Assembly (NCBI GenBank): GCA_015039465.1
Contig: MU130378.1
Span: 1,430,570-1,494,569 of the forward strand
Source of the DNA: Phlegmacium glaucopus
Lineage: Eukaryota; Basidiomycota; Agaricomycetes; Agaricales; Cortinariaceae
Length of the DNA stretch: 64,000 nucleotides
Direction: 5' to 3'
Part shown: positions 43,785 to 50,043 of the stretch, piece after piece
How positions within the stretch are numbered: the first letter of the stretch is position 1
Layout: every line of letters begins with the position of its first letter
Notes under the pieces: model-generated
Databases searched by the model: none
What the model was told of the DNA's origin: nothing
What the model saw: only the letters and a program-made list of their open reading frames with translations
Program-made: the position numbers and the translations under genes

Positions 43785-46700
43785 ATGACTGAGGTAGAAT
43801 CCTTGTTACCCACTTCAACGAACGATAACCTCGTATCTCAATCTGACACTGTTGATCTTGAACACGAGGACGGAGGTCAGGCTGACAACGTCGTTCAAGT
43901 TATGATTTCTGACAGTGTGCAGGTCACCAACAAATAGGTCTTACCGTAGACAGCAATTTTCATCCTGGAGTGCCGGACGCAACGTTTAATATGACTCAAG
44001 AGAACGAGGACTCCAACACAATCGCTGACAGCAAGCCCACTGCACCAAAGACGAAAGGCCCTATATCTGTCACTGTACCTCCTGGGAAGCCTAATGGAGG
44101 ACCCTCAACACCTACTGTTAAGAAGGTGGGTGTTTGTAACGTTTTCATTACCTCACTTGTTGACGATTATCTAGATCATCAATTCAGGAACGTTCGGTGC
44201 TGGTTCTGTAAAGCCAACTGGTTCCAAAGCCGCAGCAACTGCAGTTGCGGCAGTTCCAAAGGCAGCGGCTCCCCCATTGAAGAAGCCAACTACGTCTGCA
44301 CCTACTGCTTCATCTCGTCTAGCTATGTCCTCGACCTCCTCAAAGCCAGCTGCAACTCGCAGAGCTTCGGTTGCACCCGCGAAGTCTTCCGCCTCCCCCG
44401 CCCCAAAAGCCTCCTTGTCTGCTTCTACAAGTACGAAACCGTCTCCAGATGCCGTCGCTGCTGTCCGTAATTCCGCAGTCTCTCCAACCGGTTCTATTGC
44501 CTCAATGAAGGGGAGTACCAACACTGCCGCTCGTCCTCGTGCATCGGTGTCCGACGCTGTGAAGAAGACCCCCCTTGCCCCTAGGCTAAGCGTTGTTAAC
44601 CCAGCAAGACCTGTTGCCGCAGCAAAGACCTCCACTGTTTCTCGATCCTCGGCTGCTCCTGCAGTCAAGTCATCAAAGACTGCCAGTCCTATTTCCTCCA
44701 GCAAGGAGATTAAAGAAGATAATACCAAAGAGCGTCAGGGAAATGAGCAAGCGCTTGCAGATCTGCAAACCCAGGTCAGTTGCCAAGGTTACTAAGCACT
44801 TCCGCCCAGTTCTGACTATTACATAGCTCGAAGAGGCAACCGAATCATTGAAATCGAAAAACGACAACGTTCTCGACCTTGAGAGTCAGATTGGGAAGTT
44901 AGAGGCCTCTTTAGCGACCGCTTTGGCAGAGGTTGAAGCCAAAACTATTTCCATGGAAGAGATGGAAAACGCTAAAGCTCTCGTCGAGGCGCAGCTCCAA
45001 GAGACGCAGGCTTCTTTGGGTAAACCTCAGACTGAAGTCCTGGTTCTCAACGCCTCTCTATCCTTGATTCAGAAAGAGGTATGTAGCCATTTTTTTAAAT
45101 GCCTACACGTTTTGATTGGATTCAGCTTGAGGAAGCGAAATTCGCTGCAAATGCTCAAGATACGCTGGTTGGGAAACTAAAGGCTCAAATACAGAAGCTC
45201 GAGGCGGCGCTATCCTCGTCACAGGACAAAATCAAAGCTCTCGAAGAGAGTCATGCCGCAGCCGCTGCGTCTGCCGCAGAAGCCGCCTCTGTTGAGCGCG
45301 AGAGGCTCCTCCAGGCTCAGGGAAATCTCAAGGCTATCTCTGAGGAAAGTGAAAAATTGAAAGCCACTTACAAACAAGCATTGGAGGTTTCCACAACTCA
45401 AGCCGAAGCATTGGCAAAGAAAGCTGCGGAGACTGACGAACTTAAGACACAAGTGGGATCTCTCAAGTCAGAAAAGGAAGACAATGCTAACAAACTATCG
45501 GAGTTGGAGATCGAGATTCTTGAATTGAAGGAGACGCAAGAAAACCTTGAAGACACCCGTGATGATTTGCAGGGTCGAATCACTACTCTGGAGGGCGACC
45601 TTGCCAACGCTGCTGTAGCATCTGCCTTGGCAGTTGAGGCCGCAAGTGGCAAGGAGGCGGCATATTTAGCACAGCTCAGAGAACAGGTTGAACAGCACGA
45701 GAAGGAATTGGCAACCCGATCGGAAAGCCATGCAGAGATAGTCGCATCTCTCGAAACTCTCAAGGCGCAGCATGCCGACACTTCAAAAGCTTATGAGCAA
45801 ATCAAGCAGGACATAATTTTGACTGAGCAAGCCCACGCTTCAAAGCTCAGTGAACTTGAACTTGCACATGCCGCTCAACGGGATGCTCAATCTGCTGAAT
45901 TTGCAAAGATCAAGGCAGAACTCGAGGTTCTTCATTATTACTTTTCCAAGTTTCCTTTTACAAATGCTTCGTTCACAGAATCAAGAAGCCATCTACAATT
46001 CCAAGGTTGATATTGTTAAAGCTGAACATGTCCAACTTTTGCAAAATGCTTTCGAACGAGCCAAGGTCTGGTTCATTTGCCCGTTGACTTTGACGGTCAT
46101 ATCTGATTTTATCCCCTTGTTAGCAAGACGCTGGTGACGTTCATGCTCAGGAATTGCAGTCTCTTCGAGCAACCTCTAATGCGACCATCGAACAAATTCA
46201 AGCGGCCAACCAAGTTGCATTGGAAGCATTGAAGGCTGACCACCAGTCCGCTCTTGAAAACGAAAGCAACGCTCTGAACAAGCGAATTAGCAAGCTAACC
46301 ATCGAGCTCAAGGCCACCCAAGATGATCTTTCTAAATCCAAGGCTGCTCTCGAAATCTCAAGATTCGAGATGGAAAGCCTGAGCAAACAACGGGACGAAG
46401 CTCGTGCTCGTGCTGATGCCGGTCCTACCTTGTCTCCCGAACACGCCGATGAGATTGCACGCTTGACTAGGGAGCTGGCGAATACTAAAGACGACCTTGC
46501 TGTTGTGACGGATACGTTAAACTTGACGAAATCGTCTATGTTAGAGATGTCCGACAAACACACCAGAGAGCTGGAGGAAGGCGCGAAGAGTCGAGCGGAC
46601 GAAGTCATCCAATTGAAATCGACTCACGACAGTGAGGTTGCGACTCTTGCAGCTCAGAAGTCAGAGGCCTTGGTTAAACTTTCAGACCTGGAGGGTGAAC

Positions 46701-47204
46701 TTGCAACCGTTAAGGCAACTTTGGCCGCCCAGCAGAGTATCGTTCCTAAAAGTTCCAACGGATCAACACTACCTCAACAACAAAGCGTCACTAAAGAAGA
46801 TCTAACGAAAATGCACGAGGCGCATAATCTCAAAATCTACGATCTACAGGCTGAGCATCAGAAAGCTCTCAATGCCTTGAGGGAGGAGGTGGAACTGGCC
46901 AAATCCCGGGCGGGCGAACTTGAACAGGAAGTGGGACGAAAAGCCATGGAGATACAATATCTAGAACAAGATCAAGATGAAAATCAAGAGCAAATAAGCC
47001 GGTATGTCAGATTTTTCGGTATTAAGGGCTTTGTTGGAAGCATCGTCGCACTGGCAGTGGTTCATTTCCTATAATCGCTCCTCATGTCATATATTTTACC
47101 TTTTGAACGTGTCATAAGGCTTATTTACTGACTGCTCCGTTCAACATAGATTAAAGGAAGACGTCGAAAATCTGACTGAAAAGCTCAGGCAGGCGTCTGA
47201 ATAG
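43785..47204 (+). CDS. Large coiled-coil protein of unknown function
   Basis: About eight exons encode roughly 1000 residues. It begins MTEVESLLPTSTNDNLVSQS and has an acidic then Ala/Ser/Pro/Lys-rich segment (KAAATAVAAVPKAAAPPLKK, TRRASVAPAKSSASPAPK), which is basic and probably disordered. From about residue 230 to the end it is nearly unbroken coiled coil (DLESQIGKLEASLATALAEV, KLSELEIEILELKETQENL, ARLTRELANTKDDLAVVTDT), closing with KEDVENLTEKLRQASE. The layout, a basic Ser/Pro-rich head and a long rod, resembles microtubule- or cytoskeleton-associated proteins, but I see no defining domain (no CAP-Gly, kinesin or SMC head). Splice sites at 43902-43962 and near 44128-44188 were set by keeping the frame open. 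The 3' end is a short exon near 47150-47204. Confidence 0.75.
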
Positions 47205-47560: not shown

Positions 47561-48959
47561 ATGGGTGTCCCATCAGAACCAGGTCAAAAGGGTGTCAACT
47601 GGTCTAACATTGCTGTTGGTGAGCGTGTTATGTCGCTATTATGTTCTCCCTGTGCTGATGCCAACGGAAGGTGGTATCATGAATATGGTAATTTCTTCGA
47701 ACAATGACGCGAGAATGGTACTGACTATCACATCGTCTCATAAATAATTAGTTCGTGAGTACTGCCAACTTCTTCATGTTTCCGTGCTGACATTGCTTCA
47801 CTTTGTAGGAGGCAAGTCGTGTGCTAGCATCTTTCGGTTGGAAGACCAATTTTAATTATACAGGTAACCACACTTGGCCAACCCCTGGAGGTTCTTAAAA
47901 CCCAAATGGCTGCCAACCGGTCGCAATCGATGCTACAAGCTTGCAAGTATGTTTGGGCTCGAGGTGGTGTAGCAGGTTTCTATCAAGGCCTCATCCCTTG
48001 GGTAAAATCTCGTCCTTGTTTGTCCTTTAGTGGTGCTGACCGGGGCGGGGTACTCATAGGCTTGGATTGAAGCCTCTACAAAAGGGGCTGTCCTCGTCTT
48101 TGCGGCTTCTGAGGTGGAATCTGCGTCACTCAATTATGGTATAAACCCTGGGTTGGCTGGCTTGTTAGGCGGCATGACTGGCGGAATTGCTCAAGCCTAC
48201 GCGACGATGGGTGTGTATACGACCTGTCCTCTGTTTTATTCCCTATGACTAACATCCAAATAAATAGGGTTCACGACGTGTATGAAAACTGCAGAAATTA
48301 CGCGTGCTAAGTCTGCTTCCACTGGTGTAAAGCCCCCTTCCACTTGGGCTGTTTTCGCCGATATCTACCGTCGTGAAGGTCTTGCTGGAGTAAACAAAGG
48401 TGTTAATGCTGTTGCCGTTCGTCAATGCACTAATTGGGGCTCTCGGTATGACATTACACAATTCATTCTCAAGCTGCATTCTCAGTCTTGATGTATAGGA
48501 TGGGTTTTGCGCGTTTAGCCGAGGATACCATTAGGAAAGTGAAGGGTAAGGGCGAGACCGAGAAACTTGGTGCAACAGAAAAAATTCTGGCATCATCTAT
48601 TGGTGGTGCCTTGGCTACATGGAACCAACCTATTGAAGTTATTCGCGTCGAGGTGATTGCAGCGCTTCAGTAATTTGAGCGTTTACTGACATCCTTTCTA
48701 GATGCAAAGCATGGCCAAGAATACTGGAAATGTCAAGCGACCTGCTAAGCTGACGATCATGAACACCCTCCAGTTCATTTACCAAGAGAACGGGATTAAA
48801 GGCTTGTACCGTGGGGTTACACCTCGTATTGGTCTTGGTATTTGGCAGACAATATGCATGGTGTCACTAGCCGATTACGTTAAAATCTGGTGAGTTGATA
48901 GTCTATGACGGCTGTAGAGAATATGGCTAACATAATGATATAGGGTGAAAGGGCATTAG
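47561..48959 (+). CDS. YHM2: Mitochondrial citrate/2-oxoglutarate carrier Yhm2
   Basis: Ten exons total 906 nt and encode 301 residues: 47561-47618, 47671-47687, 47752-47754, 47809-47811, 47864-48001, 48060-48210, 48268-48445, 48499-48652, 48702-48889, 48944-48959. Key segments are [94 protein letters not shown] and GLYRGVTPRIGLGIWQT, matching Yhm2 closely. Yhm2 exchanges citrate for oxoglutarate across the inner membrane, supplying cytosolic NADPH, and also associates with mitochondrial DNA. Exons 3 and 4 are 3 nt each (TTC and GAG) and restore [12 protein letters not shown] at the conserved length. The intron after GAG starts GCAAGT. The MPV17-type gene starts 131 bp downstream. Confidence 0.95.
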
Positions 48960-49090: not shown

Positions 49091-50043
49091 ATGAACGCCA
49101 ACAAGAATGTGACTCACCCTCTCCTCCACAAGTATTTGACCCAGCTTAGCCTCCACCCTCTCCGGACCAAGGCTATCACAACTGGTATCTTGTTCAATTA
49201 AGCCCTCATTTTGGTCGCTTATAGCCTCCGGCAGCTATCCTATGTTTCTTGCAGGAGGTTCTTGGAAGTAACTTGTCTGGCACTCCGGCAAACGTGTCAA
49301 AAAATGCGTCAGCGATGGTACGCTCATTGCAGAGCGTTCACCTAAACACAAAGGCTGTCAAGATGGCCATCTACGGCTTCTTGGTCTCCGCGCCATTGAG
49401 TCATGCTCTCATCGGCCTTCTTCAGAAGGCATTCGCTGGAAGGACGGGCCCGCGCGCGAGGGTGGGCCAGATCATCACAAGTAACCTGTTCGTCTCTCCA
49501 ATCCAGGCCTCAGGTAACAGCCGCCTCATTAAAATGTTTTCCCTTTTGTTTCTCAACGTTTTTTTTCCTTCTTACAGTATACCTTGCCTCTATGGCCGTA
49601 ATCAATGGAGCAACTTCACTTGATGAAGTTATCAAAACAGTCAGAGCTGGTTTTTTCTCGGTAGTTCGGGTATGAACGCCACTGTCAATCTCTACACATT
49701 CCAGCTTCACCATACCTACCCACAGATTTCTTGGCTTGTTTCGCCCTTGTCAATGACGATTGCGCAAAACTTCATCCCTGTTGAGGTACATGTAATCTAT
49801 GGAACTCCTCCAGCAAATTTTATTCACCCTTTCATTTCAATTGCAGCTTTGGGTCCCATACTTCAACGCCATTCAATTTGTTCTCGGGGTGCGCTTCAGT
49901 CCCCGTTATAGTCCCTATCCAAGCTCATTGATTGATTTTATTTCTAGACATACTTCAACATGCGCGTCAAACAGGCAAGATTGGCAGCCCTCAAGAAAGA
50001 GAAACAAGGAGGCGAAAAACAAGAAAGAGAACGCAAGGATTAA
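49091..50043 (+). CDS. Mpv17/PMP22-family membrane protein
   Basis: The gene starts MNANKNVTHPLLHKYLTQLSLHPLRTKAIT (first exon 49091-49194; second from 49235). The following exons give ILCFLQEVLGSNLSGTP, HLNTKAVKMAIYGFLVSAPLSH, VGQIITSNLFVSPIQASVYL, SWLVSPLSMTIAQNFIPVELW and PYFNAIQFVLGTYFNMRVKQ. This is the four-helix Mpv17/PMP22 family, with the conserved W.SP....AQ.F.P motif near the end. Members sit in peroxisomal or inner mitochondrial membrane and form small non-selective channels. The Lys-rich tail (RLAALKKEKQGGEKQERERKD) and closeness to PMP22 favour the peroxisomal branch, but location is not shown by sequence. The stop is 58 bp from the end of convergent TRS85. Confidence 0.88.

What the first reader, a model, noticed from the sequence alone, without database searches (positions are those of the whole stretch)
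47671..47864. Two consecutive 3-nt microexons in YHM2
To encode the conserved [12 protein letters not shown] block of Yhm2, the Phe codon TTC (47752-47754) and the Glu codon GAG (47809-47811) must each be a separate exon. They are flanked by good splice sites (ATTAG|TTC|GTGAGT and TGTAG|GAG|GCAAGT). A 17-nt exon precedes them. The whole 906-nt model is in frame and ends at a stop. Two adjacent single-codon exons challenge exon-definition and suggest intron definition or stepwise splicing.
Basis: partly seen in the sequence, partly recalled or inferred. Interest (0 to 1): 0.8.

Follow-up and report, generated by a model that had tools for sequence, protein, structure and literature searches.

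The report
Twin three-base exons in mushroom YHM2
A mushroom gene for a mitochondrial transport protein seems to be assembled from pieces that include two neighbouring exons of only three bases each, and the same two residues are lost or garbled in many published mushroom gene models, which suggests an old and often missed feature.

Summary
The YHM2 carrier gene (47561-48959) is an in-frame 906-nt, ten-exon model in which Phe26 (TTC, 47752-47754) and Glu27 (GAG, 47809-47811) are separate 3-nt exons. Of 296 in-frame splice chains enumerated, one gives [12 protein letters not shown]; 3 of 20,000 shuffled intervals allow a two-microexon F-E chain. Homologues support it: 97 of 97 non-NCBI records carry F-E (81 of 97 on contigs too short for this gene's introns), against 33 of 82 NCBI records; 29 of 82 delete exactly F-E. 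Deviation is confined to these columns (42 and 43 of 82; next of 155 conserved columns, 5 of 82). Exact deletions occur in seven orders looked up. So the crowded introns are probably ancient in Agaricomycetes and often misannotated; in 13 of 82 records just one of the two residues is right, which favours two separate exons elsewhere too. Stepwise, intron-defined splicing is the best mechanism but is inferred: no RNA of this organism and no relative's genomic DNA could be read. Microexons, even of 1 nt, are known; a tandem of 3-nt exons did not appear in what I saw of the literature.

The parts
47561..47618 (+). YHM2 exon 1 (58 nt; M1 to the first base of codon 20)
   Evidence: in-frame model
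47671..47687 (+). YHM2 exon 2, 17 nt (GGIMNM)
   Evidence: similar residues in homologues
47688..47751 (+). intron 2, 64 nt, ATG|GTAATT ... ATTAG|TTC; branch-like CTGAC and CTCAT 27 and 11 nt from the 3' end
47752..47754 (+). microexon 3, TTC = Phe26
   Evidence: only in-frame F-E chain; F26 in 97 of 97 non-NCBI homologues
47755..47808 (+). intron 3, 54 nt, TTC|GTGAGT ... TGTAG|GAG; branch-like CTGAC 18 nt from the 3' end
47809..47811 (+). microexon 4, GAG = Glu27
   Evidence: only in-frame F-E chain; E27 in 97 of 97 non-NCBI homologues
47812..47863 (+). intron 4, 52 nt, GC-AG type: GAG|GCAAGT ... TACAG|GTA; only a weak branch-like motif TTAAT, 8 nt from the 3' end
47864..48001 (+). YHM2 exon 5 ([12 protein letters not shown]...)
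48060..48210 (+). YHM2 exon 6
48268..48445 (+). YHM2 exon 7
48499..48652 (+). YHM2 exon 8
48702..48889 (+). YHM2 exon 9
48944..48959 (+). YHM2 exon 10, 16 nt with stop codon

Best explanation
Three short introns (64, 54, 52 nt) sit within six coding bases of the YHM2 gene, so that Phe26 and Glu27 are each a complete 3-nt exon. The spliceosome most likely recognises each intron as its own unit (intron definition) and removes the three one after another: U1 at the donor after a 3-nt exon would cover that whole exon, so it can hardly be bound at the same time as the factors at the acceptor just before it. After one flanking intron is gone the microexon is part of a longer exon and the next intron can be defined. 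Inclusion is probably constitutive, because F and E lie in the predicted first helix, 7-8 residues before Pro34 of the carrier signature, where losing two residues would turn the helix register by about 200 degrees. The arrangement is probably ancestral to Agaricomycetes. Shown: the only F-E chain among those enumerated, and F-E in every non-NCBI homologue record tallied. Inferred: the order and mode of splicing, constitutive use, the helix effect, and the age.
For: One chain of 296; rarity by chance, 3 of 20,000. F26 and E27 in 97 of 97 non-NCBI homologues; for 81 of these 97 the longest contig exceeds the ORF by at most 300 nt, against 493 nt of introns inside this gene, so they read as spliced transcripts. 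The closest record, P0001 (94% identical), reads [12 protein letters not shown]. NCBI records: 33 of 82 F-E, 29 of 82 exact deletion, 20 of 82 otherwise different. Deviation at F26/E27 is 42 and 43 of 82 against 0 of 97, while residues beside the other six introns deviate in 0-2 of 82, apart from the generally variable position 296. Near-identical pairs differ by a two-residue gap: Botryobasidium P0169 vs P0161 (99%), Rhizoctonia P0178 vs P0166 (97.7%), Auricularia P0156 vs P0135 (97%). 7 of 82 records keep F but not E and 6 of 82 keep E but not F, hard to explain if FE were one 6-nt exon. Helix 14-31 in a model of P0001 (mean pLDDT 69.5, pTM 0.59), whose top fold matches are ADP/ATP carrier and UCP1.
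Against: No RNA of this organism was available. Isoforms lacking F or E could be hidden, since the database is clustered at 90% identity. Genomic DNA of other Agaricomycetes could not be reached (searches found none), so shared intron positions are inferred from errors in gene models, and 33 of 82 NCBI records show no error. The second microexon needs a GC donor, and intron 4 has only a weak branch-like motif. The structure model is of moderate confidence.
Confidence: 0.88

Rival explanations
1. The interval 47688-47863 is one 176-nt intron and the protein lacks Phe-Glu (MNMVTTLGQP), as many database models say.
For: The chain is in frame. 29 of 82 NCBI homologues read this way.
Against: 0 of 97 non-NCBI records lack F-E; in near-identical pairs the deletion is on the NCBI side; 176 nt is nearly three times the longest intron of the model (49-64 nt); Somion occarium has both versions listed, each from a contig of 4107596 bases (P0068, P0127).
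Confidence: 0.05
2. The two in-frame microexons are alternatively included, giving FE, F, E and zero forms that differ in carrier activity.
For: Each exon is 3 nt and phase 0, so every skipping product stays in frame; two forms are listed for Somion occarium, though these may be predictions only.
Against: No skipped form among 97 non-NCBI records, though clustering could hide them; the residues lie in a predicted helix.
Confidence: 0.1
3. F and E are one 6-nt exon, or part of a neighbouring exon, in most other Agaricomycetes; the split into two 3-nt exons is local to this lineage.
For: An exact F-E deletion would also result from missing one 6-nt exon; 33 of 82 NCBI records have F-E; relatives' genomic DNA was not readable.
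Against: 13 of 82 records get one of the two residues right and the other wrong; two of the 13 are the same species, Schizophyllum commune.
Confidence: 0.2
4. The strings AG-TTC-GT and AG-GAG-GC are chance matches picked to fit a known protein.
For: Allowing GC donors widens the choice; 28 of 20,000 shuffles offer some F-E chain.
Against: Only 3 of 20,000 offer a two-microexon chain and 2 of 20,000 a chain with introns of 45-70 nt; the donors match U1 as well as those of the other introns.
Confidence: 0.02

Closest known systems
Single-nucleotide exon in CYP621A of Fusarium (PMC12940212; passages and Discussion section read)
   Same: Ultra-small fungal exon inside a conserved motif, noticed because the protein could not be assembled and because the intron is more than twice the median length; RNA support is reported there.
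   Different: One 1-nt exon in an ascomycete P450; here two consecutive whole-codon exons in a carrier of an apparent basidiomycete, without RNA of this organism.
1-nt exons of plant APC11 and VPS55 and the adjacent 5-nt and 12-nt exons of rice (PMC8831610, passages; same pair in Zygnema, PMC11096116, passages)
   Same: Conserved tiny exons, pervasive misannotation, neighbouring microexons.
   Different: Sizes 1, 5 and 12 nt; plants and algae; verified by RNA.
RPS24 consecutive microexons of 3, 18 and 22 bp (PMC12686416, passages)
   Same: A 3-bp exon next to other microexons.
   Different: Human, alternatively spliced and tissue dependent; only one exon of 3 bp.
Solitary 3-nt exons of animals: Drosophila homothorax (PMC7392893; search listing with start of abstract), Drosophila TnT and mouse Ncam (named in PMC8042270, passages)
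   Same: Single-codon exon.
   Different: What I saw describes single exons, alternatively spliced in homothorax and TnT. The same passage also names two 5-nt exons of Drosophila Ubx, a pair of equal tiny exons.
Microexons of Phanerochaete chrysosporium P450 genes (PMC1184071, passages)
   Same: Basidiomycete, short introns, tiny exons.
   Different: Shortest exon given there is 6 bp; conservation in other species did not appear in the passages seen.

Membership tests
Yhm2-type mitochondrial carrier (SLC25) | Mito_carr repeats | tested here: met
   PF00153, 3 stretches, E 3.2e-30
Yhm2-type mitochondrial carrier (SLC25) | Full-length homology to proteins named YHM2 | tested here: met
   82% identity over 99% to P0037, 'putative YHM2-protein' of Irpex rosettiformis
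Yhm2-type mitochondrial carrier (SLC25) | Citrate/2-oxoglutarate exchange | not testable with these tools
   function transferred by name; citrate transport by yeast Yhm2 seen in the abstract of PMC10855732; exchange for 2-oxoglutarate is recalled
Constitutive microexon | Internal exon of at most 15 nt with its own acceptor and donor | tested here: met
   AG|TTC|GT and AG|GAG|GC
Constitutive microexon | Included in mature mRNA | tested here: inconclusive
   97 of 97 non-NCBI homologues carry F-E, but none is shown to be from this organism
Constitutive microexon | Conserved exon boundaries in relatives | tested here: inconclusive
   inferred from gene-model errors; no genomic DNA of relatives found
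Alternatively spliced microexon switch | Skipped isoforms in RNA | tested here: inconclusive
   0 of 97 non-NCBI records skip, but clustering at 90% identity could hide skipped forms, and no reads were seen

The most novel reading that the evidence does not exclude
Two adjacent single-codon exons have been kept since the ancestor of Agaricomycetes as a built-in splicing switch: order-dependent removal of three introns within six coding bases sets the ratio of active FE carrier to in-frame skipped forms, tuning mitochondrial citrate export.
Probability: 0.1. Interest if true: 0.85.

Novelty: new variant of a known kind. Interest (0 to 1): 0.62.

Why it matters
If RNA confirms it, this is a natural substrate for asking how a spliceosome handles exons no longer than the U1 pairing site, twice in a row, in a conserved gene of mushrooms, some of which can be grown and transformed. 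It also points to a concrete, class-wide annotation problem: 49 of the 82 NCBI records tallied do not read F-E, in a helix of a conserved carrier, which matters for structure prediction, orthology and metabolic models.

Tried and rejected
Genomic DNA of relatives: the search for related loci with P0001 in genome contigs (10 stretches matched a pattern, none a relative by tblastn) and in viral contigs (no match). A second allele or paralogue by DNA search: one match, the gene itself (that search skips simple repeats). Origin of the crowded introns by tandem duplication: introns 2, 3 and 4 are no more alike than shuffles (204, 203 and 403 of 500 shuffles reach the observed scores). A GT-only solution: none. 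Reaching outside Agaricomycetes: the three protein searches list 120 hits each of 2448, 2392 and 2479; the only named record that I recognise as lying outside the class is Calocera cornea (Dacrymycetes by recall), which reads F-E. Papers: ten searches; I saw listings, the starts of abstracts and passages of eight papers, plus the outline of a ninth. No tandem of 3-nt exons and no microexon in YHM2 appeared there. This is no proof of absence: one search listed 40 of 270 papers and one search listed 30 of 5,432, and the library lacks most subscription journals. Dropped after checking: the invariance of F26/E27 in the 56-sequence alignment as evidence, since I gave that alignment F-E records only.

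Full report
What is there. The window lies in an assembly of 60,534,613 bases in 259 contigs; its closest named homologues are mushrooms. At 47561-48959 on the plus strand lies a gene whose ten exons join into 906 nt encoding 301 aa, with three Mito_carr stretches, 94% identity to an unnamed JGI record, 90% to Galerina marginata and 82% to a protein named YHM2 in Irpex. Exons 3 and 4 are TTC (47752-47754) and GAG (47809-47811).

Is it forced? With the start of exon 2 fixed and up to three introns of at least 35 nt using GT or GC donors, 296 in-frame chains exist and exactly one gives [12 protein letters not shown] (recounted). A separate enumeration of ways to insert F-E between ATG and GTA (up to two internal exons, introns of at least 40 nt) again finds only TTC + GAG, and none if GC donors are forbidden. 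Dinucleotide shuffles of the 176-nt interval yield some F-E chain in 28 of 20,000, a two-microexon chain in 3 and a chain with introns of 45-70 nt in 2. Among 462 GT...AG 176-mers of the window, 2 allow some chain and only the real one does so with introns of 45-70 nt. The three introns (64, 54, 52 nt) are about as long as the other six (49-58 nt), whereas a single intron would be 176 nt. The microexon donors match U1 as well as the others do (5 and 7 of 9 against 5-7), but the GAG donor is GC and intron 4 has only a weak branch-like motif.

Homologues. Three protein searches (the best 120 listed of 2448, 2392 and 2479) gave 179 distinct records, and all 179 were tallied. I split them by source: 82 with an NCBI record and 97 without. 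Three of the 82 also have a jgi or lgn source (P0089, P0105, P0145); all three read F-E. All 97 non-NCBI records carry F-E before the VTTLGQP block (96 by the first pattern; the other, P0163, begins MNMFE). For 81 of the 97 the longest contig exceeds the open reading frame by at most 300 nt, where this gene has 493 nt of introns; I infer that these are transcripts. For the other 16, P0001 among them, contig length does not tell. Of the 82 NCBI records, 33 read F-E, 29 lack exactly F-E and 20 differ in other ways. On an alignment of all 179, F26 and E27 deviate in 0 of 97 and in 42 and 43 of 82 (Fisher p about 3e-18 and 8e-19; the records are related, so these are only indicative). Of 155 columns with at most two deviants among the 97, the next worst is M25, 5 of 82. 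Residues beside the other six introns deviate in 0-2 of 82, except the generally variable position 296. An earlier run on 162 records gave the same picture. Near-identical pairs make the point: Botryobasidium (99%), Rhizoctonia (97.7%) and Auricularia (97%) models differ from a non-NCBI record by a two-residue gap.

Age and separateness. Exact deletions occur in Cantharellales, Auriculariales, Hysterangiales, Hymenochaetales, Polyporales, Boletales and Amylocorticiales, by taxonomy look-up of one species each, and in genera that I recall as Agaricales. Thirteen of 82 records have just one of the two residues right (7 F only, 6 E only; two of the six are Schizophyllum commune), as expected if a gene finder catches or replaces one of two separate exons. 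The simplest reading is that the crowded introns were present in the ancestor of Agaricomycetes. This is inference: no genomic DNA of a relative could be read, and the 33 NCBI records with F-E may reflect RNA-guided annotation, good prediction or intron loss.

Mechanism. Inferred, not shown: each short intron is defined on its own, and because U1 pairing would cover all three bases of a microexon, the two sites of one microexon cannot well be used at once, so removal is stepwise. Any skipping keeps the frame, so the protein would lose one or two residues rather than be truncated. In an AlphaFold2 model of P0001 (56 sequences, chosen as F-E records; mean pLDDT 69.5, pTM 0.59) residues 14-31 form a helix that contains F26 and E27, followed by PLEVLK at 34-39. 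The 14 fold matches with E of at most 0.001 are ADP/ATP carriers, UCP1 and two chains of Tetrahymena complex IV, with TM-scores by query length of 0.42-0.56, so the model is only moderate. Removing two residues there would shift the helix register, which argues for obligatory inclusion. Introns 2-4 show no mutual similarity above shuffles, and the DNA search with the whole gene, introns included, found no second place in the assembly.

What is known. Ultra-small exons are established: 1 nt in Fusarium CYP621A (PMC12940212, passages and Discussion) and in plant APC11 and VPS55 (PMC8831610, passages); consecutive 3, 18 and 22 bp in human RPS24 (PMC12686416, passages); adjacent 5 and 12 nt in rice and Zygnema (PMC8831610, PMC11096116, passages); two 5-nt exons in Drosophila Ubx and single 3-nt exons in Ncam and TnT (named in PMC8042270, passages); 6 bp as the shortest exon in Phanerochaete P450 genes (PMC1184071, passages). 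A Trichoderma paper of 2024 says that functional microexons had not been described before in filamentous fungi, and that in fungi they had been tested only in S. pombe (PMC11121469, passages). In what I saw of ten searches no two adjacent 3-nt exons appeared. I therefore file this as a new variant of a known kind: the extreme is the tandem arrangement and its apparent class-wide conservation.

Verdict. On re-checking, one argument was withdrawn (the invariance) and the alternative-splicing membership test was set to inconclusive; neither changes the odds.

Noticed in passing
window 44277-47204: Plus-strand coiled-coil reading frames, the last stop (by eye, position confirmed) about 360 bases before the YHM2 start. 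One frame matches Pfam Nucleoprot-TPR just above its cut-off (28.7 vs 27 bits) with no single stretch passing, so perhaps only coiled coil.
   Followed up: partly
window 49091-49623: Reading frames just downstream recall an Mpv17/PMP22-like membrane protein to me (recall only); the one frame tested, 49249-49620, matches no Pfam family at E 0.001.
   Followed up: partly
P0017, P0085, P0136, P0163 (homologous records): Four non-NCBI reading frames start at the Met codons of exon 2 yet have M-F-E-V joined. They could be transcripts that retain intron 1 while the crowded introns are already spliced, a hint about splicing order; the gene caller's choice of start or an incomplete contig could also explain it.
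   Followed up: no
P0117, P0119 (Schizophyllum commune): Gene models keep E but lack F, as if only one microexon is missed there; possibly the intron between E and V was lost.
   Followed up: no
window 48944-48959: The last coding exon is also tiny, 16 nt including the stop codon.
   Followed up: no
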